Virus record (IMG/VR): IMGVR_UViG_3300042860_002788
Location: 1 to 22,208 of that record
Direction: 5' to 3' (one strand)
Source of the DNA: a virus
DNA: 22,208 nucleotides
The translations under genes were made by a program, and so were the position numbers. Under the pieces are notes generated by a model, which did not search any database, had not been told where the DNA came from, and was given only the letters and a program-made list of their open reading frames with translations. Positions 5,063 to 17,707 of this stretch are shown here, piece by piece. The first letter of the stretch is position 1; the number at the start of each line of letters is the position of its first letter.

Positions 5063-5628
5063 TGTCGCCACTTCCACCATTAGGCTTTTTCGCTAAACCC
5101 GCAGCCGCAGTAGGTGACTTTGAATCCATCGCTACTGGCACAGTCGGCGCTAGTTCAACTTCATCTGTAATCACGTTCAGTTCAATCCCTAGCACTTATG
5201 CTCATCTACAACTGCGTATGTTTGCGAGGGCAACCGCATCTAACACTATGTTTGTTCGCTTTAATAATGATTCAGGTGCAACAAATTACGATAATCACCG
5301 AATGAATGGAAATGGAAGCACTGTTGGTGCAGATGCCAGAATAAATTATTCTGCGCTTTTTGTATCGTCTAGAGGTTATGGTGTTCCTTCAACAGCACTC
5401 ATTGGCTCGGCTATTGTTATGGATATTCTAGATTACACAAATACAAATAAATACAAAGTTACACGAACTTTATCTGGTCAGGAACTTAACACCTCTAATA
5501 GCGATATAGAATTTACATCAGGTTCTTGGAAAAATACTAATGCAATAAACAGAATTGATGTAAGCATAGATAGTAGCACTTTAGCCGAATACACACATAT
5601 TGCCCTATACGGCATAAAGGGGGCATAG
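5062..5628 (+). CDS. Tail-tip/fibre-like protein, paralog 1 of 3
   Basis: A 188-aa beta-rich protein, first of three tandem paralogs. After a short Pro-rich leader (MSPLPPLGFFAKPAAAVGDF) it has ESIATGTVG, ITFSSIPSTYAHL, a VRFNNDSGATNY segment, and ends IALYGIKGA. All of these line up with the next two genes. The start is the ATG in TAATG overlapping the previous stop; an in-frame upstream GTG lies inside the preceding gene and is unlikely. The role is inferred from position among fibre genes and from composition: a virion surface or receptor-contact protein. No enzymatic motif is visible. Confidence 0.75.
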   Translation: MSPLPPLGFFAKPAAAVGDFESIATGTVGASSTSSVITFSSIPSTYAHLQLRMFARATASNTMFVRFNNDSGATNYDNHRMNGNGSTVGADARINYSALFVSSRGYGVPSTALIGSAIVMDILDYTNTNKYKVTRTLSGQELNTSNSDIEFTSGSWKNTNAINRIDVSIDSSTLAEYTHIALYGIKGA

Positions 5629-5631
5629 CCA

Positions 5632-6117
5632 ATGGCAATTACTTATGAGCCGATAGCAACGACAACGCTAGGAAGCGCACAATCAACAGTTTCTTTCACT
5701 TCAATTAGCGGTTCTTTCACCGACCTTGTTTTGATTGTTAATGGCGGATTAGATTCGGGTAGCGCTGAGTGTAATCTGAGATTCAATTCAGATACAGGCA
5801 GTAATTATTCTTATACCGCATTGGAAGGAAATGGCACCAGCGCTTCTTCTTATCGCGGTTCTAATCAAACTAGATTATGGTTTACCAGTTATTACAGCGC
5901 CTCGCGTTCTATGAGCATAGTCAATATACAAAATTACTCAAACAGCACCACACATAAAACCGCCATCATCCGTCATAATAACGCTTCAGTTTATACGGCG
6001 GCCTCGGTTGGTTTATGGCGTAGCACTTCAGCCATCACAGCAATAGAGTTATATCCATCCTCTAACAACTGGGCTACTGGAACAACCTTCACTCTCTACG
6101 GAATTGCGAGTGCATAA
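5632..6117 (+). CDS. Tail-tip/fibre-like protein, paralog 2 of 3
   Basis: A 161-aa Ser/Thr/Asn-rich beta protein. It starts MAITYEPIATTTLGS, then VSFTSISGSFTDLVL, NLRFNSDTGSNYSY, and ends TTFTLYGIASA. The same order of motifs is in its neighbours, so it is a tandem paralog. This family is familiar from uncultured phage genomes as an unnamed short structural protein, but I know of no assigned function. A receptor-binding or tail-tip decoration role is inferred only from location. Its stop overlaps the start of the third copy (TAATG), implying coupled translation and similar dosage. Confidence 0.75.
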   Translation: MAITYEPIATTTLGSAQSTVSFTSISGSFTDLVLIVNGGLDSGSAECNLRFNSDTGSNYSYTALEGNGTSASSYRGSNQTRLWFTSYYSASRSMSIVNIQNYSNSTTHKTAIIRHNNASVYTAASVGLWRSTSAITAIELYPSSNNWATGTTFTLYGIASA

Positions 6118-6647
6118 TGGCAACTACTTATGAGGCAATAGCCACAGTCACAGTTGGTAGCGGTGGGGCGGCTAATATTACTTTTAGTTCTATACCTGCA
6201 ACTTATACAGATTTATTGGTTAAAATCTCAAGTCGTTGTGATTATGGCGAAATTGACCAAGCAGTTTTTGTTAGATTTAATGGTGATTCTGCGGCTAATT
6301 ATTCTATTAGGGAATTGTTGGGTAACGGTTCGGTTGGGGTGTCAAGTCTTTCTTGGTCTAGTCAAACTTTTATTTTTGCATTTCAAGGCGCTGCTCAAAA
6401 TGCAACTTCAAACACTTTTGGAAATATAGAGATGTATATTCCAAATTATGCTGGTTCAACAAATAAATCTGTAAGCGTTGATGGTGTTACTGAAACTAAT
6501 GCTAGTTCTGGAACAAATAGATTAAATTCATTAAGTGCTTCTCTTTGGTCAAATACATCAGCAATTACATCAATTGCACTTACATCTCAAAACGGTTCAT
6601 TTGTGCAATACTCAACCGCCACCTTATACGGCATCAAAAACTCCTAA
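6117..6647 (+). CDS. Tail-tip/fibre-like protein, paralog 3 of 3 (A+T-rich)
   Basis: A 176-aa protein starting MATTYEAIATVTVGS, followed by ITFSSIPATYTDLLV, VRFNGDSAANYSI and the C-terminal TATLYGIKNS, so it is homologous to the two preceding genes. Much of its coding sequence is visibly more A+T-rich than the tape measure or lysis genes (about 32-43% G+C in hand-counted 60-base blocks after the first), with many T-ending codons. This suggests recent exchange from a different phage lineage, as often seen for host-range genes. Virion surface role inferred from context. Confidence 0.75.
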   Translation: MATTYEAIATVTVGSGGAANITFSSIPATYTDLLVKISSRCDYGEIDQAVFVRFNGDSAANYSIRELLGNGSVGVSSLSWSSQTFIFAFQGAAQNATSNTFGNIEMYIPNYAGSTNKSVSVDGVTETNASSGTNRLNSLSASLWSNTSAITSIALTSQNGSFVQYSTATLYGIKNS

Positions 6648-8100: not shown

Positions 8101-8370
8101 ATGAATCGGGGGAAGATTTTGGATGAGGCCAAACGCCTCACCGCAACGGATCGTCAAAGTATTTATGGCGACCCTTACATAAATCACAAACGCATCGCAG
8201 ACCTGTGGAGTGTTTATCTTGAAACTGAGATAAGCCCTTCACAGGTCGCTTTGTGTTTATGCCTTGTGAAAATTGCTCGGCTCATAGAAACACCTGACCA
8301 CTTAGATAGCATCATCGACTTGGCGGCTTACACCGCTATTTATGGGGAAATCAATGATTCAAAAAAATAA
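8101..8370 (+). CDS. DUF6378-like phage protein
   Basis: An 89-aa protein matching a widespread phage family (DUF6378 type): KILDEAKRLTATDRQSIYGD near the N-terminus, then HKRIADLWSVYL, ISPSQVALCLCLVKIARL and a C-terminal DSIIDLAAYTAIYGEI. The fold is probably all-helical, and the conserved DR--YGDP and DS-IDLAAY blocks are all present. Its biochemical role is unknown; the family often sits near nucleotide-metabolism or structural genes. The start is the ATG after the previous stop. Earlier in-frame TTG/GTG codons would overlap the preceding gene and have no better ribosome site. It overlaps the next gene by 17 nt. Confidence 0.8.
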   Translation: MNRGKILDEAKRLTATDRQSIYGDPYINHKRIADLWSVYLETEISPSQVALCLCLVKIARLIETPDHLDSIIDLAAYTAIYGEINDSKK

Positions 8371-9031
8371 CTTAGTGCTTGTGCCAACAAGAGGCAGGCC
8401 AAAAAATGCAGTTGAAGTCTTGCAAGCACATAGAGAGTTTTCTTGTCGCTCTGACTTGCTCTTTGTTGTGGACAAAGATGATGAAGAGATTGTCAATTAT
8501 CGAAGCTCAGTTGGCGTTGAATACATCCTAGAAATTGAAAATACCACACGGGGGATGGCTTATCCTGTCAATGTCGCTGCCAAGAAATATGCAAATGAAT
8601 ATGAGTTCTTCACCTTCATTGGCGATGACCATAGATTCAGAACACCTGATTGGGATATTGCCTTGATGAAAGCGATAGGCAGCGCCCCTGGCATTTCCTA
8701 TGGCAATGACCTTTTGCAAGGTGAGAACTTGCCAACTGCGGTGATGATGTCAAAAGCCATTGTCAGCGCCCTTGGCGGGATGGTGCCACCGAAACTTCGC
8801 CATCTCTACCTTGACAACTTTTGGAAGAAGATAGGTCAAGACCTTGGCAACCTTGTTTATCTGCCTGAAGTCATCATTGAGCATTGCCATCCATTAGCAG
8901 GCAAAGCCGAGTGGGATGAAGGCTATCGCTCTGTCAATGCCCGTGAAGTTTATTCATTTGATGCCTTGGCCTATGACTCCTACATCAAGAGCGAGGACTA
9001 TGCAGTTCTCTTGCGAGATTTATTGAAATGA
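8354..9031 (+). CDS. Glycosyltransferase-like protein (GT-A type)
   Basis: A 225-aa protein with the features of a family-2-like GT-A fold. These are an N-terminal LVLVPTRGRP nucleotide-sugar-binding strand, a central FFTFIGDDHRFRTPDWD with an acidic metal-binding Asp pair, and a C-terminal acceptor region including HLYLDNFWKKIG and EHCHPLAGKAEWDEG. It may transfer a sugar to a virion protein, phage DNA or host surface polymer; the acceptor is not evident. It forms a three-gene block with the next two genes, all overlapping by 4 nt. Of the ATGs at 8342 and 8354 I chose 8354, because GGGGA at 8344-8348 is correctly spaced for it. Confidence 0.75.
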   Translation: MIQKNNLVLVPTRGRPKNAVEVLQAHREFSCRSDLLFVVDKDDEEIVNYRSSVGVEYILEIENTTRGMAYPVNVAAKKYANEYEFFTFIGDDHRFRTPDWDIALMKAIGSAPGISYGNDLLQGENLPTAVMMSKAIVSALGGMVPPKLRHLYLDNFWKKIGQDLGNLVYLPEVIIEHCHPLAGKAEWDEGYRSVNAREVYSFDALAYDSYIKSEDYAVLLRDLLK

Positions 9032-9765
9032 GAGCAGTTTCATTCTCGCTCTATGGCAATGATCCGCGCTACACCATCGGAGCTATCAAGAACGCAATTC
9101 TTGGCTCGCGTTATTTTCCATTTGAAGATGGCTTCCGCTTAGTCTTTTATGTGGGCCAAAGCGTTGAAGATTGGGTTGTCAGCACCCTAAACCTTGTCAA
9201 AGGTGTCAAGATAGTCAGGATGAGTGAGTTAGAAAATAACACCGCAAGGCTTTGGCGTTATCTTGCTTTTGCTGACCCGCAATTTGAAGTGGTCATCTGC
9301 CGTGATGCCGATGCCCGTCTTTCTTTCCGCGACCGAATAGCCCACGAAGAATGGGAGCAATCAGGTCTTGATTATCACATCATCAAAGACCATCCTTCAG
9401 GTCATAATTACCCAATAAGCGCAGGGATGTTTGCCGGCAAGACCTACAAGTTTCGAGATATGGCAGAACTTATTGCCAGCGATAACCCTGGCGATTTCTA
9501 CACCACAGACCAAGCATTTCTTGAAAAAGTTATCTATCCTTGGGTAAAGGATTCAGTCTTAATTCACGATCCGTTTTACAACACACCTATTGAGGGCAAG
9601 TCAATAAGAACAGGCATTGCCTTTGATGCGCCAACTAAACTTTCCCACATTGGCGCAGCTCTTGATGAAAATGACCGCTATATCTTTAGGATTGACCGCG
9701 ATGCTCAATTGGCAGAAGCGAACACTGAGAAATATAAATATGAGAGCGACAGGTGGGGAAAATGA
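9028..9765 (+). CDS. Second glycosyltransferase-like protein
   Basis: A 245-aa protein starting MRAVSFSLYGNDPRYTIGAI, a nucleotide-sugar-binding-like strand-loop. It carries a DxD-type motif in VVICRDADARLSFRD (about residues 88-102), then HIIKDHPSGHNYPISAGMF and DFYTTDQAFL. The DAD plus later His/Asp pattern recalls retaining or inverting GT-A enzymes, but the family is not one I can name with certainty. It starts within the stop of the first transferase (ATGA), so the two are coupled. The gene after it encodes an epimerase that could supply the sugar. Substrate unknown. Confidence 0.65.
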   Translation: MRAVSFSLYGNDPRYTIGAIKNAILGSRYFPFEDGFRLVFYVGQSVEDWVVSTLNLVKGVKIVRMSELENNTARLWRYLAFADPQFEVVICRDADARLSFRDRIAHEEWEQSGLDYHIIKDHPSGHNYPISAGMFAGKTYKFRDMAELIASDNPGDFYTTDQAFLEKVIYPWVKDSVLIHDPFYNTPIEGKSIRTGIAFDAPTKLSHIGAALDENDRYIFRIDRDAQLAEANTEKYKYESDRWGK

Positions 9766-10628
9766 AAATCCTGATAACAGGCGATGAAGGCTTTGTCGGC
9801 ACTAACTTCAAGAAACATCTTGATTCTAAGAACAACCAAATCACCGGCATTGACATAAAGAATGGGCGCGATGTCCGTGACTTCTTTGCTAAAGATGACA
9901 CCAAATTTGATGTGGTCATTCATCTCGCGGCCATTGTCGGTGGCCGTGCCACCATTGAAGGAAATCCTTTGGCAGTTGCCGCCGACCTTGCCATCGATGC
10001 CGACCTCTTCCAATGGGCGCTTCGCACTCGCCCTGGACATTTAGTTTATTTCTCATCTTCTGCTGCCTATCCAATTTTCTTGCAAAGAGCTGAATACAAG
10101 CAGAAGTTAAAAGAGTGGGATATAAACCTTGACCATATAAGAACACCTGATATGACCTATGGTTGGGCAAAGTTATCAGGCGAGAAACTTGCCTCTTATG
10201 CTCGCGCTGAAGGCTTGGGAATAACTGTTCTTCGCCCATTTTCAGGCTATGGCACGGATCAAAGCCTTGACTATCCTTTCCCATCATTTATCAAGCGAGG
10301 CAGAGAGAAGGAAGCGCCATTTAATGTTTGGGGCAAAGGAACGCAAGTGCGCGACTTCATCCACATCGAGGACATCGTCAGAGCTACCTTTGAAGCCATC
10401 ACAAACAAGGTTGAAGTTTCTAATCTCTGCTCAGGTAGAGCGACATCTTTCATTGACTTGGCAGAACTTGTGATGATGCAGGCAGGTTATTTGGCTGAAA
10501 TAAAAACCAACCCGAACGCACCTGTTGGGGTGGCATATCGGGTTGGCGACACTCACAAAATGCTTTCCTTCTATGAGCCAAAAATCTCACTTGAAGAGGG
10601 CATTGAGCGAGCCTTGAAAGGTATTTAG
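9762..10628 (+). CDS. NAD-dependent sugar epimerase/dehydratase
   Basis: A 288-aa extended short-chain dehydrogenase that probably converts a nucleotide sugar. It has the Rossmann NAD motif TGDEGFVG (residues 6-13), VVIHLAAIVGG, VYFSSSAAYP with the active-site Ser region (98-100), and the catalytic Y133-x3-K137 in YGWAKLSGEKLA. It also has GYGTDQ and a C-terminal VRDFIHIEDIVRA typical of the family. It completes the sugar cassette with the two transferases. The start is the ATG in the ATGA overlap with the upstream gene; GTG at 9753 is in frame but overlaps the ribosome site GGTGGGG. Its stop overlaps the stop of the converging minus-strand gene. Confidence 0.9.
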   Translation: MKILITGDEGFVGTNFKKHLDSKNNQITGIDIKNGRDVRDFFAKDDTKFDVVIHLAAIVGGRATIEGNPLAVAADLAIDADLFQWALRTRPGHLVYFSSSAAYPIFLQRAEYKQKLKEWDINLDHIRTPDMTYGWAKLSGEKLASYARAEGLGITVLRPFSGYGTDQSLDYPFPSFIKRGREKEAPFNVWGKGTQVRDFIHIEDIVRATFEAITNKVEVSNLCSGRATSFIDLAELVMMQAGYLAEIKTNPNAPVGVAYRVGDTHKMLSFYEPKISLEEGIERALKGI

Positions 10629-10864
10629 AACTCTCTCTCCATTTTCTTGATGGTTCGGTTGATGTATTTAGGGCCTGCCCAATCCATAAACCATTGCGGA
10701 AATACAACCGCACTTGGTTGGCGCTTTGGCATAAATAGCACCATCAGAAGCGGAATCCAAAAGCCATAAAAGGCTGATAGGAAAGCCCAAAAGAAGATGT
10801 TTCTGCCAATGGCAAAGGCATAGAAAGCAGTGAAGAAAACGATTAGCAAATCCCATCCATTCAT
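10625..10864 (-). CDS. Small two-TM membrane protein, function unknown
   Basis: A 79-aa protein with two probable transmembrane helices (about residues 5-22 and 24-46; LLIVFFTAFYAFAIGRNIFF and FLSAFYGFWIPLLMVLF), followed by a basic amphipathic tail. It is the last gene of the minus-strand operon; its ATG follows directly on the stop of the Prim-Pol gene (TAAATG). The stop overlaps the epimerase stop on the other strand by two bases. Such a protein could be a superinfection exclusion or membrane-anchoring factor, but nothing in the sequence proves this. Confidence 0.7.
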   Translation of the reverse strand: MNGWDLLIVFFTAFYAFAIGRNIFFWAFLSAFYGFWIPLLMVLFMPKRQPSAVVFPQWFMDWAGPKYINRTIKKMEREF

Positions 10865-11323
10865 TTAGCACCATCCCATCACAGGGGCAGGCTCAATGTC
10901 TTTGACAATTTCATAGAATTTGCCGTTTTCGTGCATTGATCCTGCGGTGACAACATATCCATTGAACTTGATGTCAACGCCATCGCGCAGTTTGCCCTTG
11001 AAAGAAGCGCCAAGTGGAGCTTTGTAGTAGAGATGCAAGCCATCACCTGTTTCAACTGTGAAGGTGTCAAGGTCTAAGCCATCGGTTGTTCCGCCATTGC
11101 GGTAGTCAATATCAAAGACCACTAGATTTGATGGCGCACAAGCAATGCCAATGTTTAGCAATGGCGACTTCTCAAACCACTTCTTGACTGTGGCAGGTTT
11201 ATTAGAGGCTGACTTATAGCCTTGCTTTGCTATTGGAAAGAATGGAATTTTTTGTTGCGGATAGCAAGGCAGAACATACCAACCGCGCTTTGCAAAGGCG
11301 GTGGCGATTTCGGCAGTTGTCAT
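10865..11323 (-). CDS. Stand-alone Prim-Pol (bifunctional primase-polymerase) domain protein
   Basis: A 152-aa protein consisting only of a Prim-Pol (AEP superfamily) domain, which makes primers or extends DNA. The N-terminus (IATAFAKRGWYVLPCYPQQKIPFF) is the usual start of this domain. The metal-binding D71-I-D73 is in NLVVFDIDYRNGG, the conserved His (H97) in GDGLHLYYKAP, and the third acidic strand in RDGVDIKFNGYVV followed by TAGS. There is no helicase domain, unlike the large Prim-Pol/ATPase at 17715. The ATG at 11323 overlaps the upstream stop (ATGA) and follows AAGGAG; a longer version would start inside the upstream gene and is unlikely. Confidence 0.85.
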   Translation of the reverse strand: MTTAEIATAFAKRGWYVLPCYPQQKIPFFPIAKQGYKSASNKPATVKKWFEKSPLLNIGIACAPSNLVVFDIDYRNGGTTDGLDLDTFTVETGDGLHLYYKAPLGASFKGKLRDGVDIKFNGYVVTAGSMHENGKFYEIVKDIEPAPVMGWC

Positions 11324-11451
11324 TTGACATACTCCTTCAAGAAATCGTTGATGGCTTCGGACAATGATTTGCCCTCTGCCCGCGCCTTCGCCTGCGCCTT
11401 GCGCCATAGTTGGTCAGATACACGAACGCTTCTAATCTTCTTCAACTTCAT
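11320..11451 (-). CDS. Ribbon-helix-helix (CopG/Arc-like) DNA-binding protein
   Basis: A 43-aa protein beginning MKLKKIRSVRVSDQLWRKAQ, a strand with alternating residues then a helix. KARAEGKSLSEAINDFLKEYVK follows as the second helix of a ribbon-helix-helix fold. Such dimeric proteins bind operator DNA, usually as repressors. It overlaps its upstream neighbour by 20 nt and the Prim-Pol gene by 4 nt. Its best guess target is the operon control region at 12488-12652. The start chosen gives the classic minimal RHH length; a longer in-frame upstream region lies inside the preceding gene. Confidence 0.75.
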   Translation of the reverse strand: MKLKKIRSVRVSDQLWRKAQAKARAEGKSLSEAINDFLKEYVK

Positions 11452-11716
11452 CACCTTTGCTCTCAAATGATTCGTAATTGGTAAGTAAAAGCCAAGCATC
11501 AGAACCCTCATCCCAAACAACTTCGAATGACCATTCTTCTTGCTCTAAGAACTGCCTTCCAAAAAGAAGGTTGGCATAAAGGTCAAACCAATATGCCCAA
11601 CGCCACTCATAGCTTTTGACACTTGGTTCAAAATGCAATTCGTGTTTTTTCCAATGCACACCCCATTCCATCGAAGTTTGGTGCAAACGCATAAAGTCTT
11701 CGTTTGTCAGTTTCAT
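11432..11716 (-). CDS. Small acidic Trp/Tyr-rich protein, unknown
   Basis: A 94-aa protein rich in Trp, Tyr, Phe and Glu (for example MEWGVHWKKHELHFEP and YEWRWAYWFDLYANLLFG), ending in an acidic tail DEVEED. No signal peptide or clear TM segment, and I do not recognise the family. The start ATG overlaps the previous gene's stop (TAATG) inside the repeated 17-bp junction element, so translation is probably coupled. Being small, acidic and in a phage minus-strand accessory operon, it could be an inhibitor of a host protein, but that is only a guess. Confidence 0.6.
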   Translation of the reverse strand: MKLTNEDFMRLHQTSMEWGVHWKKHELHFEPSVKSYEWRWAYWFDLYANLLFGRQFLEQEEWSFEVVWDEGSDAWLLLTNYESFESKGDEVEED

Positions 11717-11730
11717 TATGCACCGACCTT
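11714..11730 (-). repeat. Junction repeat copy 3 (gene overlap element)
   Basis: Plus-strand sequence CATTATGCACCGACCTT. Read on the minus strand it encodes Lys-Val-Gly-Ala-stop of one gene and contains the ATG of the next (TAATG), with AAGG about 10 nt before that ATG acting as ribosome site. Identical to the copy at 11950. Confidence 0.85.
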
Positions 11731-11952
11731 TTGATTGTAAGGATGATTGGGTGAATCCCAAGGTGTGCAAACTTCACACACTAAATCTGCGCCACCAAGA
11801 AGATGCGTGTAATACGCGCACCAAGTTCCAAGTGGTGTTCTATGTTGTATTGCCTCACTATTTGCTTGGAATGCTGACCGCAAATAAGTTCCTGCGTGGT
11901 CATCGCAAACAACAGTTCCATTGTCGTCAACCCATAAACGATTAGTTGTCAT
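11716..11952 (-). CDS. Small hypothetical protein, Cys/His-containing
   Basis: A 78-aa protein with VVCDDHAGTYLRSAF near the N-terminus and CAYYTHLLGGADLVCEVC in the second half. The Cys and His spacing (C-D-D-H and C-E-V-C) could hold a zinc, though not in a pattern I can name. It ends KVGA, like its two upstream neighbours, because the last codons are part of the repeated junction element. Start and stop both overlap neighbours by one base. Function unknown. Confidence 0.6.
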   Translation of the reverse strand: MTTNRLWVDDNGTVVCDDHAGTYLRSAFQANSEAIQHRTPLGTWCAYYTHLLGGADLVCEVCTPWDSPNHPYNQKVGA

Positions 11953-11966
11953 TATGCACCGACCTT
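11950..11966 (-). repeat. Junction repeat copy 2 (gene overlap element)
   Basis: Same 17 bases as the copy at 11714, again exactly spanning the stop/start overlap between two unrelated small genes and encoding the KVGA terminus of the upstream protein. Confidence 0.85.
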
Positions 11967-12194
11967 CTGAGTGCGGTGCATCCGATAATTGATAGCAACT
12001 GCGCCATTAGCAAGTTCTTGGTCAATGTTGTTGACAACTGTTGCCAAGTTATATGGAAAGGTATTACGACCACCATCTGCATCTTGTATGCGATAACTAA
12101 AACCTGACTTATCTGTGCGCCTTGTTATTGAGATTCCGCGATAGTCATAACCATAAGCGGTCTTGATAAGTTGCGCTCTTTGATCCTTTGTCAT
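11952..12194 (-). CDS. Small hypothetical protein
   Basis: An 80-aa protein with mixed alpha/beta composition (TKDQRAQLIKTAYGYDYRG, SITRRTDKSGFSYRIQDADG, then a helix NLATVVNNIDQELANG). It is not homologous to the neighbouring genes, yet its last four residues (KVGA) and its junction DNA are the same. I do not recognise a family. One-base overlaps on both sides suggest a strictly coupled operon. Confidence 0.6.
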   Translation of the reverse strand: MTKDQRAQLIKTAYGYDYRGISITRRTDKSGFSYRIQDADGGRNTFPYNLATVVNNIDQELANGAVAINYRMHRTQKVGA

Positions 12195-12208
12195 TATGCA
12201 CCAACCTT
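12192..12208 (-). repeat. Junction repeat copy 1 (gene overlap element)
   Basis: One base differs from the other two copies (CATTATGCACCAACCTT); the encoded KVGA-stop and the overlapping ATG are unchanged. It lies between the first and second genes of the minus-strand operon. Confidence 0.85.
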
Positions 12209-12487
12209 TGGAACAATCCTGTAAGTTCCTTTTACTTCGCCAAGAATCGTTAGCATTTGATTAACTGTTAAACCTAATTCATTGAGAGCAGAAACAAATT
12301 GGCTTAGATAGATTTTGTCATTGTCTTTGAAAGTCTTGAAATAAATCGCATTACCATTCTGCCAAATGTGAATACCATCGCATTGTGCAGGAAAATAACT
12401 AGCGGAATCCGTCACATAATTTATTCCTAACTTCTTGACGATACCGCGCAACTTTGCAGTTGTGATGATGTCTAGTGTTTCTAACAT
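12194..12487 (-). CDS. First gene of the minus-strand operon, hypothetical
   Basis: A 97-aa protein with an N-terminal helical part (LETLDIITTAKLRGIVKKLG), a beta segment (DGIHIWQNGNAIYFKTF) and a further helix (YLSQFVSALNELGLTVNQML), ending KVGA. The mix of short helices and a beta hairpin could be a small DNA- or protein-binding fold, but I do not recognise it. It has its own ribosome site (AAGGAAGG, 7 nt from the ATG on the minus strand), as expected for the leading gene of the operon, and faces the divergent control region. Confidence 0.6.
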   Translation of the reverse strand: MLETLDIITTAKLRGIVKKLGINYVTDSASYFPAQCDGIHIWQNGNAIYFKTFKDNDKIYLSQFVSALNELGLTVNQMLTILGEVKGTYRIVPKVGA

Positions 12488-12652
12488 TGTCTTGCCTTCC
12501 TTCGGAGCTACTACCTTTCACCCCGATAAGAGAAGAGTAGCTTAAGTGCCTACCTTTGTCCATACACTACTTATTAGGCATTTGGGCGTGTCGGGCATAG
12601 GGTGTCAGCCCTTCCCCTCATACTTAGCGCAAGTCAACAGAAGGGGTGTTAT
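12488..12652. promoter_or_regulatory. Divergent control region between minus and plus operons
   Basis: About 165 bases separate the first minus-strand gene from the first gene of the plus-strand DNA-metabolism module, so both promoters should lie here. I find no convincing -35/-10 pair. An inverted repeat TGCCTA (12547-12552) / TAGGCA (12575-12580) with a 22-nt spacer is a candidate operator. TTGACT on the minus strand is a fair -35 but lacks a good -10 partner. The ribosome site of the minus gene (AAGGAAGG) and of the plus gene (AAGGGG at 12641-12646) mark the two edges. Confidence 0.5.
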
Positions 12653-12805
12653 ATGGAGTTTGTTATGTTCGGGGCTGTAATCGGCATTCTATGCCTTTTA
12701 TGGGGCATTCTGAGCCTACACGATGACCCACTAGAAGAGGGCATTCGGCAGGCGCAGGCTTGGGAGAGCCGTCAGAAGGCTCTTGCAAGGGCGGTGGGCA
12801 AGTGA
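12653..12805 (+). CDS. Small single-TM protein
   Basis: A 50-aa protein with one N-terminal transmembrane segment (VMFGAVIGILCLLWGILSL), then a short charged tail (HDDPLEEGIRQAQAWESRQK). The ATG at 12653 is 6 nt after AAGGGG; a longer in-frame extension upstream lacks such a site. It ends in a GTGA overlap with the next gene. It is the first gene of the plus-strand DNA module. No family recognised. Confidence 0.6.
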   Translation: MEFVMFGAVIGILCLLWGILSLHDDPLEEGIRQAQAWESRQKALARAVGK

Positions 12806-13137
12806 ACCTATTTTCTGTCCACAATGCCACAGACGGATCAGTAGTCCTCTACCTAGAAGAGCAGGATGCCAACCTTGACCTTCTTGAAGATGTCGTGGCG
12901 CAGGTGCCTTTGTTGGCCCTCTCTCGCCTTGCCGAGCATTCAGGCCTTGATTCTTTGAAGTCAGAGCAGGCTGCAAGGCTTCTCGACAAGGTCAGGGCGC
13001 AACTGCCTGACATCGCAGTCAAGCTCGCCTCAATAACAGAAGATGAGGCGCTGGCCTTGGCTGAACAATTGATTTTGGCAGTGAAGTTCGCCCGCGCCGT
13101 TGCCGGCAAACCTACGAAATTGGAGTTGGTGAAGTAA
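12802..13137 (+). CDS. Acidic helical protein, unknown
   Basis: A 111-aa protein. The first part is beta (NLFSVHNATDGSVVLYLEE), the rest mostly helical and Leu/Ala-rich (LLEDVVAQVPLLALSRLAEH, EQAARLLDKVRAQL, DEALALAEQLILAVKFARAV). The start is the GTG overlapping the previous stop (GTGA). The stop overlaps the nuclease start by one base (TAATG), so these are co-translated. I do not recognise the family. Position between a TM protein and an Hjc-like nuclease suggests a DNA-metabolism accessory. Confidence 0.65.
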   Translation: MNLFSVHNATDGSVVLYLEEQDANLDLLEDVVAQVPLLALSRLAEHSGLDSLKSEQAARLLDKVRAQLPDIAVKLASITEDEALALAEQLILAVKFARAVAGKPTKLELVK

Positions 13138-13487
13138 TGGCAAATCCCAATGGTCGCAAAGGCTCTGCGTTTGAAATCGGAGTTCTCAAGTGGTTGCGTT
13201 CTCGCGGTGTCACCGCCGAGCGTTTGCGATTATCGGGATCAAAAGATGAAGGCGACATAGTTGCCTTTATTGCAGGCAAGACTTATGTGCTTGAACTGAA
13301 AAATCGCAAGGCAATAAGCCTTCCGACCTTTTGGGATGAGGCAGTTAAGGAAGCCAAGAATTATTCAAAGGCACGGGGCCTAGAAGAAGCTCCACCATCA
13401 TTCGTTGTTGTGAAGAGAAGGAACGCCTCTATTGAGAGGGCATTCGTTATTCAAGACCTTGAATCCTGGTTAGGTGAGAGGCAATGA
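13137..13487 (+). CDS. Hjc-like PD-(D/E)xK nuclease, putative Holliday junction resolvase
   Basis: A 116-aa nuclease of the restriction-endonuclease fold. The family pattern is clear: an N-terminal GRKGSAFEIGVLKWLRSRG with the acidic E13, the basic RLRLSGSKDEGD with D40, and the catalytic strand YVLELKNRK with E53-x-K55. A helical end follows, with FWDEAVKEAKNY. This matches archaeal-type Hjc/VRR-like resolvases, which cut four-way DNA junctions during replication and packaging. The length fits a stand-alone dimeric resolvase. It starts in a TAATG overlap and its stop overlaps the WhiB start (ATGA). Confidence 0.8.
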   Translation: MANPNGRKGSAFEIGVLKWLRSRGVTAERLRLSGSKDEGDIVAFIAGKTYVLELKNRKAISLPTFWDEAVKEAKNYSKARGLEEAPPSFVVVKRRNASIERAFVIQDLESWLGERQ

Positions 13488-13954
13488 ATGTTCTCCAACA
13501 CTTTTATCCTGCGCTTCCACTTCTTCCCGAAGCAAGTTGCAAAGGCATCATCAATCCAAACTTATTTTTTCCTGAATCAAAAGAACAAGAGGCAAAGTGC
13601 CTTCCAATCGCGCGCAGTATTTGCGCCGGTTGTCCTGAAAGAAAGGAGTGCTTGGACTACGCGCTCAAAGAACAAATCCCTCACGGAATATGGGCAGGGA
13701 CCACGCCTGCACAGCGAGGCTTTGGGCAAGGATTTAAGAATCGCAAAACAGGGCGAGTCAATCGCGCTGATGCAATCCGATCCTTGCATTCTTTTGGGCG
13801 AACACCCAAAGAAATCGCAGACACTATGAGAATCGAATTGGCTTATGTCACTCAGGTTCTCAAGAGAGCTGCGAAATTAGAAGGAGAATCCCAATTACTC
13901 AACGCAAAAAAACCTTCAGGGGAATCATCATCATCATCGGAGTCAGCGCAATGA
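13484..13954 (+). CDS. whiB: WhiB-family Fe-S transcription regulator with C-terminal HTH-like region
   Basis: A 156-aa protein carrying the WhiB signature. Four Cys are placed C19...C47-x2-C50-x5-C56 (ICAGCPERKECLDYAL), followed by the G-[IV]-W turn motif in HGIWAGTTPAQRG (68-72). This should bind a 4Fe-4S cluster and contact the host sigma factor. After about residue 90 it continues with ADAIRSLHSFGRTPKEIADT and MRIELAYVTQVLKRA, which looks like a helix-turn-helix not present in short WhiB proteins. The C-terminus is a Ser/Glu-rich tail. The family is confined to actinobacteria and their phages, so it indicates the host group. It probably redirects host transcription. The tail DNA also encodes the signal peptide of the next gene. 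Confidence 0.9.
   Translation: MNVLQHFYPALPLLPEASCKGIINPNLFFPESKEQEAKCLPIARSICAGCPERKECLDYALKEQIPHGIWAGTTPAQRGFGQGFKNRKTGRVNRADAIRSLHSFGRTPKEIADTMRIELAYVTQVLKRAAKLEGESQLLNAKKPSGESSSSSESAQ
13879..13896 (+). promoter_or_regulatory. Strong ribosome site leading to a probable ATT start codon
   Basis: AGAAGGAG at 13879-13886 is followed after 7 nt by ATT (13894-13896), in frame with the transglycosylase gene. No ATG, GTG or TTG exists in that frame between the preceding stop (13768-13770) and the ATG at 13951. The spacing is ideal for ATT and far too long for 13951. Confidence 0.6.
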
Positions 13955-14322
13955 CTTCAATGTTGGTGAATGCGGCATTTGCACCACAACCTGCAATTCC
14001 TGCATCTATTGTTTACAAAGAAAGACCTATCTTGAAGCAAGTCGATGCTAAGCAATTAGCAAAGAAATTGCTGACAAAAAAAGAGTATTCCTGCCTGGCG
14101 AAATTGCTCGGTAAGGAGTCGGCGTGGAATGCAGAGTCCAAGAACCCTGCTTCGAGCGCCCGTGGCATTGGCCAGTTGCTTGATGCCACCTATCGCAACC
14201 TCGGAATGAAACACACTGAGGCATCGGTGCCACAACTTGTGGCAACACTCGCCTATATCCATCGGCGACACCTGACTCCCTGCAAGGCTTGGAGTCATTT
14301 TAAGGAAAAGAACTACTACTGA
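13894..14322 (+). CDS. Secreted lytic transglycosylase-like (SLT) protein, probable ATT start
   Basis: If started at ATT 13894 the product is 142 aa. It has a textbook signal peptide: basic n-region TQRKKTFR, hydrophobic core GIIIIIGVSAMTSMLV, and cleavage after NAAFA (residue 30). The mature part has the SLT/lysozyme-like pattern: a helix with catalytic Glu in LGKESAWNAESKNP (E75, or E56 from the ATG), then SARGIGQLLDATYRNLG and a final helix with AYIHRRHLTPCKAW. It would cut the host peptidoglycan from outside the membrane. Started at ATG 13951 (123 aa) the basic n-region would be lost. It overlaps the WhiB tail in another frame. It lies away from the lysis genes, so a role other than final lysis is possible. 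Confidence 0.75.
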   Translation: MTQRKKTFRGIIIIIGVSAMTSMLVNAAFAPQPAIPASIVYKERPILKQVDAKQLAKKLLTKKEYSCLAKLLGKESAWNAESKNPASSARGIGQLLDATYRNLGMKHTEASVPQLVATLAYIHRRHLTPCKAWSHFKEKNYY

Positions 14323-14337
14323 AAAAAAGGCGGGGTC

Positions 14338-14658
14338 GTGTCAACTGAAATCGAAAAGGGCGTGGTGGACTTTGACGAGAACATCGCAATGTGGCTTGAA
14401 CAATATCGCCACGCCCTTGCCAAAATAAAAGAATGGGAAGAGGTCGGCGATGTCGCCCGATCCCATATCGAAGCTGCTCTTGGCGACAATGAAGTCGGTC
14501 TTTACAAAGGCCAACAAGTCGTCAAGTTCTCAACTGTCACATCGACAAGATTTGATGTGAAACGAGCAAAGGAAATCTTGCCACCACAGGTGCTTGATGT
14601 CCTAAATGTTCAAAGCACTCATCGCAGATTCTCTCTTGTGAGCCAGGATGAGCAATGA
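14338..14658 (+). CDS. Recombination-associated helical protein (YqaJ-tail-like)
   Basis: A 106-aa protein. The first half is a long helix (ENIAMWLEQYRHALAKIKEW), the second has LGDNEVGLYKGQQVVKFSTV and FDVKRAKEILPP, ending RRFSLVS. This arrangement resembles the C-terminal accessory region found in or beside phage YqaJ/lambda-type exonucleases. Here it is a separate gene two genes upstream of a RecB-like exonuclease. A role in helping that enzyme is inferred. The start is GTG at 14338; a purine-rich AAAAAAAGGCGGGG precedes it. Confidence 0.6.
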   Translation: MSTEIEKGVVDFDENIAMWLEQYRHALAKIKEWEEVGDVARSHIEAALGDNEVGLYKGQQVVKFSTVTSTRFDVKRAKEILPPQVLDVLNVQSTHRRFSLVSQDEQ

Positions 14659-14735
14659 GCATCCCTTACTTAAATCCAATGGAGCCAATTGTTCCAATAA
14701 TTCCTGACTATGATGATGAAGAAGAGGAAGATTGA
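14655..14735 (+). CDS. 26-aa acidic mini-protein
   Basis: A 26-codon frame, MSIPYLNPMEPIVPIIPDYD plus a DEEEED tail. Its ATG overlaps the upstream stop (ATGA) and its TGA overlaps the exonuclease ATG (TGATG). The double overlap is exactly what the surrounding real genes show, which argues for translation. It may act mainly as a coupling peptide or may bind a basic partner. Function unknown. Confidence 0.5.
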   Translation: MSIPYLNPMEPIVPIIPDYDDEEEED

Positions 14736-15478
14736 TGACCTTAGTGTCACCTGTTTCACCTGCTAAAGCTCTAGGTCAAGGACTCTCTGAGATTATTACT
14801 CAGGCAGGCATTTGGACTCCAAGAGCCAAGCAAGTCGTCATCGGGCCATCAGAAATTGGTCACGATTGCACAAGGCGACTTGCTTACAAACTCCTTGATT
14901 GGGAGAAGACCAACGAAGGCGGTTCCTCTAATTGGAGCGCCCAAGTTGGCAGCGCAATTCACAAATATCTTGCAGATGTCTTTGCAAGAATTGAAGGCTA
15001 TGAAGTCGAGAAGCGAGTCAATATCCGTGGCAACCTGACCGGCACCGTTGACCTTTATGACAGTGTGCGTGGCATCGTTATTGATTGGAAAACCACAAGT
15101 CCTAATCAGATGGATCGCAAACGCAAAGAGGGCAAAAACCCTCAATACTTCACACAAATTCAACTCTATGGCTACGGAATGGCACAAACTGGAGCCCCTG
15201 TCAATCAGGTTGCCCTTGTCTATCTGCCCACAAGTGGTGGCATAGATGAGATGCACATAGAACTTTATGACTATGACGAATCGGTAGCTCTGAAAGGTTT
15301 AGAGCGAATGGATAACATCCACGCTCTACTTGCTCAGGTTGATGTGGAAACAAATCCTGCAATGTGGGAGATGATTCCATCAAAGCCAAACCGACTTTGC
15401 AACTATTGTCCTTACTTTTTGCCTTACTCAAAAGACCTCTCGAAAGGATGCTACGGTGAAACCGCGACTCGTAATTAG
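14735..15478 (+). CDS. Cas4/RecB-family PD-(D/E)xK exonuclease with Fe-S cysteines
   Basis: A 247-aa nuclease of the RecB/AddB/Cas4 superfamily, probably producing 3' single strands for phage recombination. Visible motifs: IGHDCTRRLAY with C45; H76 in GSAIHKYL; TGTVDLYD with D106; IVIDWKTT with D117-x-K119; and the Q-x3-Y helix TQIQLYGYG (Q141-Y145). Three C-terminal Cys in RLCNYCPYF and KGC (C222, C225, C239) together with C45 make the iron-sulfur staple typical of Cas4 and AddB. No Cas genes or repeats are nearby, so it is a phage recombination enzyme. ATG 14735 (TGATG overlap) is preferred to TTG 14732. Confidence 0.88.
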   Translation: MTLVSPVSPAKALGQGLSEIITQAGIWTPRAKQVVIGPSEIGHDCTRRLAYKLLDWEKTNEGGSSNWSAQVGSAIHKYLADVFARIEGYEVEKRVNIRGNLTGTVDLYDSVRGIVIDWKTTSPNQMDRKRKEGKNPQYFTQIQLYGYGMAQTGAPVNQVALVYLPTSGGIDEMHIELYDYDESVALKGLERMDNIHALLAQVDVETNPAMWEMIPSKPNRLCNYCPYFLPYSKDLSKGCYGETATRN

Positions 15479-15677
15479 TCCGATGAAGCATTGGGAAGCA
15501 AGAATCCTCAATTCTGTCGCTTGGCTTATTGGAATGCGCGGTGGCTCTGTTGGCTATTGCTGGATTGAAACAACTGAAGAAGCTGATGAAAACGACATTG
15601 AAGTGACAATCAATGACATAGTAAAAAACAATGAAGAAGATGAAGCAAACAAAATAGAAAAGGAGTCGGGGGAATGA
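15456..15677 (+). CDS. Small protein with acidic C-terminus, unknown
   Basis: A 73-aa protein. The N-terminal part is basic to neutral (KPRLVISPMKHWEARILNSV, AWLIGMRGGSVGYCWI) and the C-terminus strongly acidic. It starts at GTG 15456, which has AAAGGA 7 nt upstream; the later in-frame ATG at 15483 has no ribosome site. It overlaps the exonuclease by 23 nt and ends in an ATGA overlap with the SSB-like gene. The acidic tail recalls tails that contact DNA-repair partners, but this is a guess. Confidence 0.55.
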   Translation: MKPRLVISPMKHWEARILNSVAWLIGMRGGSVGYCWIETTEEADENDIEVTINDIVKNNEEDEANKIEKESGE

Positions 15678-16138
15678 CCTTCGCATCACCAGGAAATCAA
15701 AGCGAGTCAGTGAAAGTGGCAGACCTTGCCAATCACTTGCTTATTATTACACCTATTGAATATAAGACAGGGATTCAAACTGTCCACGGCATCGCCGAGG
15801 CAGTCGAAGTCAATGTCTATGATCTTGACACAAACACCGAATACAACTCTTTGCTTTGGTTCAATGTTGCACTTCGCAATGCGCTGAAGACAAAACTGAA
15901 TCAGAAGGTTCTTGCCCGCATCGGCCAAGGCCCTGCCAAGCCTGGCAAGAGCGCGCCGTGGATTTTGCTAGATGCCACTAGCGATGCGACAGCAATTGCA
16001 AAGGCAAATGCTTATCTTGCGGCACCGCCTGCGCCTGTGGCAACGCCTGCGCCTGTGGCCTCTATTGCAAATCCAACTGCGGGTTTAACACCTGAAGTTG
16101 CAGCTCTGCTCGCACAACTTGGAGCAAAGCCACTATAA
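15674..16138 (+). CDS. Single-stranded DNA-binding-like protein (actinophage type)
   Basis: A 154-aa protein with a beta-rich core resembling the OB-like ssDNA-binding proteins of actinophages. The pattern is ADLANHLLIITPIEYKTGIQ, EAVEVNVYDLDT, LLWFNVALRNALK, VLARIGQGPAKPGKSAPWIL and LDATSDATAIAKANAYL. It lacks the acidic bacterial SSB tip and instead has an Ala/Pro linker with an 18-nt tandem repeat (from 16026) encoding PAPVAT, then a hydrophobic helix ending AQLGAKPL. It follows an exonuclease, as expected for a recombination set. It starts in an ATGA overlap. Confidence 0.7.
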   Translation: MTFASPGNQSESVKVADLANHLLIITPIEYKTGIQTVHGIAEAVEVNVYDLDTNTEYNSLLWFNVALRNALKTKLNQKVLARIGQGPAKPGKSAPWILLDATSDATAIAKANAYLAAPPAPVATPAPVASIANPTAGLTPEVAALLAQLGAKPL

Positions 16139-16140
16139 AT

Positions 16141-16295
16141 GTGAAAGCAAGGCGGTTTTCCTTCCGTCACCGTCTTGCATCATAAGGTTGCCTGTGTCCT
16201 ACCTTTCCACGGGCAACCAAGCAGTGCTTGGGAGCGATGAGATACGGGGTCATTCATCGGCAGGTTCGATTCCTGCCACTGCACTCGACAAATAA
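16141..16295 (+). ncRNA. Structured non-coding RNA with hairpins and tRNA-like 3' domain
   Basis: The gap between the SSB-like gene and the next gene holds consecutive stable helices. P1: GCAAGGCGG (16147-16155) with CCGTCTTGC (16170-16178), 9 bp including one G-U. P2: GGTTGCCTGTG (16186-16196) with CACGGGCAACC (16208-16218), 11 bp including one U-G. A tRNA-like domain follows at 16220-16283. An alternative hairpin CCAAGC-AGT-GCTTGG (16217-16231) competes with P2 and with the acceptor-like stem, so a switch is possible. No CDS is supported here. The element ends just before an A-rich stretch and the AAGGAG of the next gene. It may be a separate RNA or a leader acting in cis. Confidence 0.6.
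16220..16283 (+). ncRNA. tRNA-like domain lacking a normal D-arm
   Basis: Acceptor-like helix GCAGTG (16221-16226) with CACTGC (16277-16282). A perfect T-arm: GCAGG (16260-16264), loop TTCGATT, CCTGC (16272-16276), directly stacked on the acceptor helix. A central hairpin CGATGA (16235-16240) with TCATCG (16254-16259) takes the place of the anticodon arm. Only 8 nt (16227-16234, containing GGG) stand where a D-arm should be. No CCA is encoded and the outermost A16220-A16283 cannot pair. Total length about 64 nt. It is not a canonical tRNA; the geometry is closer to the tRNA-like part of tmRNA. Confidence 0.5.
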
Positions 16296-16306
16296 AAAGG
16301 AGTCAA

Positions 16307-16486
16307 ATGTGTCGCCACATCTTCGAAACCATTGGAGTTGCCATATGTCCTGACTGCGGGCGTGACACTCACGAAACAGATTTTGAGTTTCAAATAGAAC
16401 TTCATAAGCAATGGATAAGAGATGGCAAGGCAGATTGGAACATCTGCCCACTAGGGGGAACGATTAGGGGATGGTGGTCAATATGA
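16307..16486 (+). CDS. Small zinc-ribbon-like phage protein
   Basis: A 59-aa protein starting MCRHIFETIGVAICPDCGRD. Cys at 14 and 17 (C-P-D-C), with C2 or His22 and C47 (NICPLGG) as possible further ligands, suggest a zinc-binding knuckle. The C-terminus GTIRGWWSI and the central HETDFEFQIELHKQWI look like those of an unnamed protein family I have seen in phages. The ATG has AAGGAG 4 nt upstream. Its stop overlaps the methyltransferase ATG (ATGA). It is the first gene after the structured RNA, so the RNA could control it. Confidence 0.7.
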   Translation: MCRHIFETIGVAICPDCGRDTHETDFEFQIELHKQWIRDGKADWNICPLGGTIRGWWSI

Positions 16487-17223
16487 CAACGGCAGTGTCA
16501 CTGTTTGCAGGTGTTGGCGGGTTTGACTTAGCTTTAGAGCGAGCAGGAGTCAAAGTTGTCGCAAGTGTTGAGTGGGATAAGAACGCGCAAAATGTATTGA
16601 GAAAACAATTTCCGAATGCACAAGTATTCGGCGACATTCAGGGGGTCACAGGTGAACAATTACGAGCAGCAGGATTTAATCCCGAAGATGGAATCATCAC
16701 CGGTGGATTTCCTTGCCAAGACCTTTCCGTTGCTGGAAAGCGAGCAGGGTTGGCGGGATCGCGTAGTGGACTTTTCTGGGAAATCTGCCGACTCCTTGAC
16801 GAAACAAGAACGCAGACTTTTATCCTCGAAAATGTCCCTGGTTTACTTTCCTCAAATAACGGAAGAGATATGGCCGTTGTCGTTGAAGCGTTGGTCGAGC
16901 GCGGGTATCGCATCGCTTGGCGGGTGCTTGATGCTCAATACTTCGGAGTTCCCCAAAGAAGGCGTAGAGTCTTCATTGTCGGATGTCTTGGAAACCAAGG
17001 GCGATCACCTGAAGAAATACTCGCTATCAGCGAAGGCCGCGCAGGGTATCTTGCGAAGAGCAACGCGCCGAGGAAAGGTTCTTCCACAACCATTGCAAGA
17101 GGCGCTGAATCAAGTGGCGAACGAGCAGTCACAGGAACTTTAGCGGCGAGAGATTACAAAGGACTCGCTGCCGATGATTTATTGGACAACAAAGCAATTG
17201 TTGATTTAGTGAGTAAAGATTAA
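16483..17223 (+). CDS. dcm: C5-cytosine DNA methyltransferase, N-terminal part (motifs I-VIII)
   Basis: A 246-aa product with motif I (SLFAGVGGFDLALERAG), motif IV GFPCQDLSVAGKRAG with catalytic C78, motif VI ILENVPGLL (E116-N-V) and motif VIII VPQRRRRVFIVG (158-162). Motifs IX and X and most of the target recognition region are absent; they are encoded by the next ORF in another frame. A full C5 methyltransferase is usually 320-450 aa, so this is half an enzyme or the alpha subunit of a split one, as known for two-subunit C5 methyltransferases such as M.AquI. It probably protects phage DNA from host restriction. Start at ATG 16483 (ATGA overlap); ATG 16471 is possible but abuts its ribosome site. 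Confidence 0.88.
   Translation: MTTAVSLFAGVGGFDLALERAGVKVVASVEWDKNAQNVLRKQFPNAQVFGDIQGVTGEQLRAAGFNPEDGIITGGFPCQDLSVAGKRAGLAGSRSGLFWEICRLLDETRTQTFILENVPGLLSSNNGRDMAVVVEALVERGYRIAWRVLDAQYFGVPQRRRRVFIVGCLGNQGRSPEEILAISEGRAGYLAKSNAPRKGSSTTIARGAESSGERAVTGTLAARDYKGLAADDLLDNKAIVDLVSKD
16616..17143 (+). CDS. Overprinted phage protein (SLSDVLE/GILRRA-type) inside dcm
   Basis: A 175-aa frame lying wholly within the methyltransferase gene, one base out of phase. It does not read like a random shadow. It contains SPVDFLAKTFPLLESEQGW, MLNTSEFPKEGVESSLSDVL and YSLSAKAAQGILRRATRRGK followed by LPQPLQEALNQVA. I recognise this as an unnamed phage family with conserved TLNTSEWP, SLSDVLE and LS-A-AGILRRAEKRGK-LP blocks. 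In other phages the methyltransferase sequence over the same DNA also shows the matching pattern, so the overlap is probably old. Function unknown. The true start could be ATG 16616 or ATG 16688; no strong ribosome site is visible. A family search would settle it. Confidence 0.6.
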   Translation: MHKYSATFRGSQVNNYEQQDLIPKMESSPVDFLAKTFPLLESEQGWRDRVVDFSGKSADSLTKQERRLLSSKMSLVYFPQITEEIWPLSLKRWSSAGIASLGGCLMLNTSEFPKEGVESSLSDVLETKGDHLKKYSLSAKAAQGILRRATRRGKVLPQPLQEALNQVANEQSQEL

Positions 17224-17230
17224 AAAATAA

Positions 17231-17707
17231 ATGATGGTTATTGTAATGAGAGAACGAGAAGGAAAAGCGGGGGGGGGGAAGGGATTTCTACTAGCGGAGA
17301 ACAGGAGTTTTACATTGGCGACAAGTAATTTTCAAATTATTTTCTATGGACAGAGAGTAGGTGATGTCAGAGTGCAAGATGACAAGATAAACACTTTGCA
17401 GGCAAGAATGGGAACAGGCGGAAACAATATGCCGATGTTGGCAGAGGTCTTAGCCTTTGATGCTTACAATCAAACTGTTAGCGAAACAAGTCAAACAATC
17501 AAAGCCCATACTGCTAACAAAGAAAACATTGGAACTATTTGGGAGAAGTCAACAGTGCGCCGATTGACACCGACAGAGTGCGAGAGGTTGCAAGGATTTC
17601 CTGATGGATGGACAGAGGGCCAAGCCGATTCGCACCGCTATAAACAAATGGGCAATGCGGTGGCGGTGCCTGTTGTCGAGTGGATTATTAACAGAATAAC
17701 AAACTAG
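17231..17707 (+). CDS. dcm: C5-cytosine methyltransferase, C-terminal part (TRD, motifs IX-X)
   Basis: Up to 158 aa. It has MREREGKAGGGKGF and INTLQARMGTGGNNMPM, typical of the region between motif VIII and IX in phage methyltransferases. Motif IX RRLTPTECERLQGFPDGWTE and motif X RYKQMGNAVAVPVVEWI follow. It is in another frame from the N-terminal half, separated by a short A+T-rich stretch with stops in all three frames. Starts at ATG 17231, 17234 or 17246 are possible; none has a good ribosome site, though re-initiation after the nearby stop could serve. It may be a beta subunit of a split enzyme or the remains of a broken gene. A ten-G tract lies in its first codons. Confidence 0.8.
   Translation: MMVIVMREREGKAGGGKGFLLAENRSFTLATSNFQIIFYGQRVGDVRVQDDKINTLQARMGTGGNNMPMLAEVLAFDAYNQTVSETSQTIKAHTANKENIGTIWEKSTVRRLTPTECERLQGFPDGWTEGQADSHRYKQMGNAVAVPVVEWIINRITN
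17269..17278 (+). repeat. Ten-G homopolymer tract in the methyltransferase C-terminal ORF
   Basis: Ten consecutive G encode the Gly-Gly-Gly of the EGKAGGGKG segment. Runs this long are prone to slipped-strand errors in replication and also in sequencing. Gain or loss of one base would shift the frame of the downstream motifs IX-X. Confidence 0.85.

What the first reader, a model, noticed from the sequence alone, without database searches (positions are those of the whole stretch)
11714..12208. Identical 17-bp stop/start junction reused between unrelated small genes
Seen: CATTATGCACC[GA]ACCTT three times, each time exactly at a gene boundary. Each copy encodes KVGA-stop and embeds the ribosome site and ATG of the next gene. 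The genes themselves are not alike. Inference: a modular joint that lets small genes be swapped by homologous recombination while preserving translational coupling, a cassette-like accessory island.
Basis: partly seen in the sequence, partly recalled or inferred. Interest (0 to 1): 0.7.

Follow-up and report, generated by a model that had tools for sequence, protein, structure and literature searches.

The report
Swappable phage genes sharing start/stop joint
In a large, uncultured group of viruses that probably infect aquatic actinobacteria, a row of tiny accessory genes is rapidly reshuffled between viruses, each gene ending in nearly the same short sequence that stops its own translation and starts the next gene, so that almost any gene can be placed after any other and still be made.

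Summary
The 17-mer is real: three exact copies (minus-strand sense AAGGTNGGTGCATAATG), each an in-frame KVGA stop overlapping the next ATG, none elsewhere in the window. At least 119 IMG/VR stretches carry it; the reversed control finds 2. With close variants it joins 134 different gene-family pairs.

In contigs picked by a flanking prim-pol gene, not by the motif, 31 of 106 array TAATG junctions are exact and the rest are mostly graded variants; 131 other TAATG junctions of those contigs have none. The island claim holds: window and relative L368 are about 96% identical on both sides of an unrelated block (11960-12506).

The exchange-joint claim holds only partly. The variable part of the motif travels with the left gene and is at background when only the right gene is shared. 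Homology breaks at GCATAATG, which any exchange sparing both overlapping genes would require, and breaks also occur at ATGA overlaps.

Best reading: a gene-owned Shine-Dalgarno plus TAATG re-initiation coupler, constrained at nucleotide level (GGT in 60/60 KVGA tails against 27% of Gly codons), that makes accessory genes interchangeable. A new variant of phage boundary, start-associated or interlinked-gene junctions.

The parts
12488..12506 (-). Leader and ribosome site of the first array gene (GAAGGAAGG at 12495-12503); left edge of the exchangeable island
   Evidence: Homology with relatives L367, L368, L369, L370 resumes at 12502-12506 and with L015 at 12485
12194..12487 (-). Accessory gene 1 (97 aa, family a12/F95), ends KVGA
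   Evidence: ORF; also in L408 and L410 with other right partners
12192..12208 (-). Joint 1, AAGGTTGGTGCATAATG: SD-like AAGG..GGT, KVGA stop overlapping the next ATG
11952..12194 (-). Accessory gene 2 (80 aa, family a9/F47), ends KVGA
   Evidence: ORF; three right partners at M-like joints in the unbiased set
11950..11966 (-). Joint 2, AAGGTCGGTGCATAATG; breakpoint of homology with L368 (11960), L015 (11954) and L372 (11958)
11716..11952 (-). Accessory gene 3 (78 aa, family a6/F61), Cys-rich, ends KVGA
   Evidence: ORF; three right partners at M-like joints in the unbiased set
11714..11730 (-). Joint 3, AAGGTCGGTGCATAATG
   Evidence: left gene continues and right gene differs in L068
11432..11716 (-). 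Accessory gene 4 (94 aa, family a8/F40), last gene of the array, no KVGA tail
   Evidence: ORF; family recurs with other left partners
11320..11451 (-). Arc/ribbon-helix-helix-like protein (family a1/F11), start of the conserved part of the operon
   Evidence: phrog_6506 E 9e-12; RHH_1; homology with L367, L369, L370 starts at 11444
10865..11323 (-). Small Prim-Pol domain protein (152 aa), the core gene used for unbiased sampling
   Evidence: PF09250 E 6e-27; 205 relatives in IMG/VR

Best explanation
The 17-mer is the consensus form of a translational coupler that belongs to the 3' end of each small accessory gene. AAGG-(1-2 nt)-GGT pairs with the anti-Shine-Dalgarno end of 16S rRNA, and the TAATG overlap lets the terminating ribosome re-initiate on the next gene. 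KVGA is mainly the coding by-product of that RNA signal. Because every such gene ends in a coupler and begins with an ATG fitted to it, genes can be exchanged one or a few at a time, with crossovers in the GCATAATG overlap, and expression of the whole chain is kept. Shown here: the motif, its restriction to the array, its nucleotide-level constraint, its inheritance with the left gene, the change of partners and the breakpoints. Inferred: re-initiation, pairing with host 16S rRNA (host tail assumed), and that the benefit is easy gene turnover in an accessory operon. How the DNA is exchanged (annealing at microhomology, or illegitimate joins filtered by selection) is left open.
For: Array-specific in contigs not selected by the motif: 31 exact of 106 array TAATG junctions, mostly graded variants for the rest, 0 of 131 other TAATG junctions. 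Nucleotide-level constraint: KVGA tails use AAG 60/60, GGT 60/60 (27% of Gly codons otherwise), GCA 56/60, with the Val third base free. Strongest predicted anti-SD pairing of all junction classes (-10.95 against -7.7 for ATGA and -3.3 kcal/mol for random ATGs). The core AAGGYNGGYGC is followed by ATAA in 192 of 205 cases. Variable half moves with the left gene (0.87 against 0.63, background 0.69). 134 family pairs share the joint; up to ten right partners for one family. Island replacement between about 96% identical flanks. At M-like joints right-shared blocks mostly start at -6/-5 and left-shared blocks end at +2 to +4.
Against: No expression data. Host and its 16S tail are not known. Exact joints exceed the independent-position expectation (12.2 against 5.7 of 37 left families), which may mean some shared ancestry of the tails rather than selection alone. 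Partner exchange is not exclusive to this joint. Function and benefit of the accessory genes are unknown.
Confidence: 0.75

Rival explanations
1. The 17-mer is a homologous-recombination joint: identical copies anneal between co-infecting phages (phage single-strand annealing recombinase) and are kept mainly because they allow gene swapping.
For: Exact 17-mers at many mosaic boundaries; recent exchanges with identical joints on both parents (L075/L415, L410/L408). M-like joints show more partner change than ATGA joints in the unbiased set (61/73 against 11/26 pairs). A Cas4-like exonuclease and a RusA-like resolvase are encoded. Lambda Red joints can form in short identical blocks (PMC2327257).
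Against: When only the right gene is shared the variable half is at background identity, so in most exchanges less than the 17-mer was common. Other tight joints break as often in the motif-selected set and ATGA joints carry many breakpoints. The overlap alone confines viable crossovers. No annealing protein was identified in the genes searched.
Confidence: 0.15
2. The C-terminal peptide KVGA itself is selected, for example as a degradation or localisation tag, and the DNA identity follows.
For: Unrelated proteins share the same last four residues.
Against: Codons are fixed beyond codon usage. Neighbouring joints keep AAGG..GCATAATG while changing the peptide to KAVA, KENA, KANA, EVSA or KDIA.
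Confidence: 0.03
3. An ordinary strong ribosome site of these phages with no special link to gene exchange; the shuffling is the usual mosaicism of phage accessory regions.
For: Non-motif tight junctions between small genes break as often in the motif-selected contigs (32% against 30%); many ATGA breakpoints.
Against: The motif is confined to the accessory array and absent from the other TAATG junctions of the same contigs. Partner turnover is higher at M-like joints in the unbiased set.
Confidence: 0.07

Closest known systems
Start-Associated Sequences (SAS) of Cluster K mycobacteriophages (PMC3203893)
   Same: Repeated short SD-bearing sequence just before the starts of different gene families, in the non-structural half of actinophage genomes, one orientation.
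   Different: SAS is GGGATAGGAGCCC, mostly after intergenic gaps of more than 50 bp and not a coding stop/start overlap; it is tied to the downstream gene (and to ESAS inverted repeats), whereas this joint belongs to the upstream gene.
nin region of lambdoid phages, a chain of interlinked genes (Kroger and Hobom 1982, as cited in PMC8022706)
   Same: Row of small accessory genes with overlapping stop/start codons and the SD inside the upstream gene (lambda joints read).
   Different: Lambda joints are mostly ATGA and only loosely alike (for example gctgcATGA, ggcgcATGA); here the overlap is TAATG with a near-fixed 15-17 nt sequence over many families.
Short conserved boundary (linker) sequences proposed to drive phage mosaicism (discussed in PMC3029335 and PMC2327257)
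   Same: Short conserved sequence at the boundary of exchanged modules.
   Different: Here it lies at single-gene boundaries, is part of the coding sequence, and its conserved part is explained by translation; use as a crossover site is not shown.
PeSL mobile regulatory cassettes of T4-type phages (Arbiol 2010, Comeau 2014; titles seen in the references of PMC4503421, papers not readable here)
   Same: Repeated regulatory sequence between small genes linked to modular shuffling.
   Different: PeSLs are transcriptional (early promoter plus stem-loop, from general knowledge); no promoter or stem-loop recurs at these joints.

Membership tests
Cluster K SAS | 13-bp consensus GGGATAGGAGCCC | tested here: not met
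   The joint is AAGGTNGGYGCATAATG
Cluster K SAS | Located a few bases before the starts of genes of different families | tested here: met
   134 family pairs
Cluster K SAS | Mostly with genes preceded by intergenic gaps of more than 50 bp | tested here: not met
   Start overlaps the upstream stop in 176 of 192 sites
nin-type chain of interlinked genes | Overlapping stop/start with the SD inside the upstream gene, in a row of small genes | tested here: met
nin-type chain of interlinked genes | ATGA overlaps | tested here: not met
   The motif joints are TAATG; ATGA joints occur elsewhere in the same arrays
Boundary/linker sequences of mosaic phages | Same short sequence at boundaries of exchanged segments | tested here: met
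Boundary/linker sequences of mosaic phages | Exchange depends on homology at that sequence | not testable with these tools
   Needs a cross; the sequence evidence is ambiguous
PeSL cassettes | Promoter and stem-loop between genes | tested here: not met
   Promoter-like sites 2 (shuffles 3.8), terminator-like 4 (shuffles 2.4), none recurring at the three joints on the coding strand
Integron-type cassette array | Recombination sites with inverted repeats between cassettes | tested here: not met
   No inverted repeat at the joints
Integron-type cassette array | Linked tyrosine integrase | tested here: inconclusive
   None among the proteins searched, but the record is a 22-kb fragment and not every gene was searched

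The most novel reading that the evidence does not exclude
These phages maintain a standardised joint that serves both as translation coupler and as short homology for a phage annealing recombinase, so that accessory genes are exchanged one by one like interchangeable parts: an evolved assembly standard for gene acquisition.
Probability: 0.15. Interest if true: 0.75.

Novelty: new variant of a known kind. Interest (0 to 1): 0.52.

Why it matters
Short conserved sequences at mosaic boundaries have long been proposed but cannot be identified at most boundaries (PMC3029335). Here is a phage group in which scores of unrelated gene families are joined by one near-identical coding joint, arrays turn over while the flanking core stays about 96% identical, and breakpoints are known to a few bases. 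That is a testable natural system for asking whether phages evolve standard translation couplers that make newly acquired genes usable at once, and whether such couplers also guide recombination.

Tried and rejected
Peptide-tag reading: rejected by codon fixation. Chance repeat: rejected by the reversed pattern and shuffles. General ribosome site of the phage: rejected, the motif is absent from non-array TAATG junctions. Common descent of the genes: no support in hhalign. Motif as an exchange hotspot compared with other tight junctions: not supported in the motif-selected set (30% against 32%), supported in the unbiased set with core genes excluded, so left open. Cellular genomes: hits look like chance plus a few fixed gene pairs, mainly one pair in Sphingomonadales. 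Cultured relatives: no DNA match to the array; best protein matches in the phage collection about 25-43% identical; the G2 actinophage records KU886271 and KU886273 are not held. Assembly artefact: judged unlikely, since a 17-bp repeat is shorter than usual assembly k-mers (general knowledge) and the same arrays recur in different metagenomes (L117/L370/L371, L075/L405). A first gene-calling attempt mis-called starts and was replaced by a dynamic-programming caller.

Full report
Observation. The pattern occurs three times exactly, at the stated coordinates and nowhere else in the window at up to three mismatches; no shuffle reached three. The genes lie on the minus strand. In sense orientation the joint is AAGGTYGGTGCATAATG: AAG GTY GGT GCA TAA, with the next ATG overlapping the stop as TAATG. 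Four small genes (97, 80, 78, 94 aa) are followed by an Arc/ribbon-helix-helix-like protein and a small Prim-Pol domain protein. A WhiB-like protein at 13484-13951 marks the record as an actinophage, following the published use of whiB as an actinophage marker (PMC10202952, PMC6802176). The group has no close cultured relative in the phage collection.

Beyond the window. Nearly all sites are the in-frame KVGA stop of one ORF overlapping the ATG of another, mostly small ones. A GGC variant is also common. Together 158 contigs hold 192 AAGG[TC]NGG[TC]GCATAA sites; the next start overlaps the stop in 176 and follows by 1-3 further bases in 16. They join 134 different pairs of gene families; one upstream family has ten different downstream partners. 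Some contigs belong to other phage groups in which one fixed gene pair carries the sequence (for example F38-F54), so not every hit is part of the phenomenon. In cellular genomes the hits are mostly one fixed pair in Sphingomonadales plus scattered others.

Unbiased set. To avoid choosing contigs by the motif, relatives were gathered by the Prim-Pol protein (alignment A1; 205 relatives, best 80 kept). The arrays upstream of it were read with a dynamic-programming gene caller; 61 of them are distinct by family order. Among 106 distinct array TAATG junctions 31 are exact and 11, 16 and 18 have one, two and three mismatches; among 131 other TAATG junctions in the same contigs none is exact and most have 5-9 mismatches. 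The joint is thus a property of the accessory array, with a graded consensus.

Nature of the constraint. KVGA tails in these arrays use AAG in 60 of 60, GGT in 60 of 60 and GCA in 56 of 60 cases, although GGT is 27% of glycine codons in the same genes; the valine third base is free. AAGG and GGT can pair with the anti-Shine-Dalgarno tail. Predicted pairing averages -10.95 kcal/mol for exact joints, -9.9 for near ones, -7.7 for ATGA joints, -7.5 for distant TAATG joints and -3.3 for random ATGs (the tail sequence is assumed). Other array joints are variations on the same theme, such as AAGGCGGTTGCATAATG and AAGGTGGTCGCATAATG. The core AAGGYNGGYGC is followed by ATAA in 192 of 205 occurrences, so the stop belongs to the unit. 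This favours a coding-embedded SD plus re-initiation overlap over a peptide tag.

Gene exchange. Arrays are combinatorial, for example a27=M=a28=M=a4=M=a1, a27=M=a22=M=a4=M=a1 and a21=M=a22=M=a4=M=a1 (=M= is the exact joint). Pairs with 97-99% identical prim-pol DNA have a mean array Jaccard similarity of 0.17, and 36 of 62 share no array gene. Window and L368 are 95.6% identical over 8214-11960 and 96.0% over 12506-16479, with unrelated genes between; L367, L369 and L370 break at 11444 and 12502, L015 at 11954 and 12485. So the island runs from the array's leader to the Arc-like gene, with internal breaks at the joint 11950-11966.

Where exchange happens and who owns the joint. When two junctions share the left gene (at least 85% identity over 90 nt) and differ on the right, positions -14..-4 are 0.87 identical; when they share the right gene and differ on the left, they are 0.63 identical, no better than background 0.69. 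The variable part therefore comes with the left gene. At M-like joints right-shared blocks mostly start at -6/-5 and left-shared blocks end at +2 to +4, that is in GCATAATG; examples are printed. Of 1187 breakpoints in arrays, 747 lie within -22..+8 of a start codon in both genomes, a window that covers 19% of array bases (pairs of contigs are not independent events).

Caution on mechanism. A TAATG overlap leaves only a few bases where a crossover keeps both genes whole, so exact breakpoints are expected whether joining is homologous or illegitimate. ATGA joints also carry many breakpoints, and in the motif-selected contigs other tight joints break as often. In the unbiased set, with the invariant core excluded, M-like joints show more partner change than ATGA joints (mean 0.66 against 0.31; 61/73 against 11/26 pairs), but position in the array is confounded with joint type. 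Exact joints exceed the independent-position expectation (12.2 against 5.7 of 37 left families), which could be shared ancestry or the pairing geometry that links positions. The same gene pair can have diverged joints.

Comparison with known systems. The organisation resembles the lambdoid nin chain, with the SD in the upstream gene and overlapping stop/start (PMC8022706); the lambda joints read are mostly ATGA and only loosely alike. SAS of Cluster K phages are repeated SD-bearing start sequences before unrelated genes (PMC3203893), but are intergenic, of another sequence, and tied to the downstream gene. Boundary sequences are the general idea (PMC3029335). T4 PeSLs are transcriptional; no such signals recur at the joints here.

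Verdict. The joint is best read as a standard translation coupler owned by the upstream gene that makes accessory genes interchangeable; its use as a homologous recombination joint is possible but unproven. New variant of a known kind.

Noticed in passing
array families a2, a4, a5, a6; window 11716-11952: Several of the swapped proteins are Cys-rich and look like small zinc-ribbon proteins without confident Pfam matches; their functions are unknown.
   Followed up: partly
window 16471-17223 and 17231-17707: A DNA cytosine methyltransferase appears split over two adjacent ORFs (N-terminal half matches PHROG DNA methyltransferases); could be a frameshift or a true split gene.
   Followed up: no
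window 17715-19775 and 10865-11323: Two Prim-Pol domain proteins in one phage: a 686-aa primase with an AAA domain and a stand-alone 152-aa domain next to the array.
   Followed up: no
window 5032-6647: Three tandem ORFs belong to one protein family by the blastp clustering (F23), possibly duplicated tail or adhesin-like genes.
   Followed up: no
L125-L244 (cellular genomes): The same 17-mer occurs at one fixed gene pair in Sphingomonadales (looks like the rplM-rpsI junction, from memory) and at what looks like rplC-rplD in some Betaproteobacteria: a recurrent coding solution for KVGA-TAATG outside phages.
   Followed up: partly
L245-L364 (IMG/VR contigs of the relaxed-codon scan): A parallel form AAGGTNGGCGCATAATG joins other small genes in many viral contigs, some of the same families.
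   Followed up: partly
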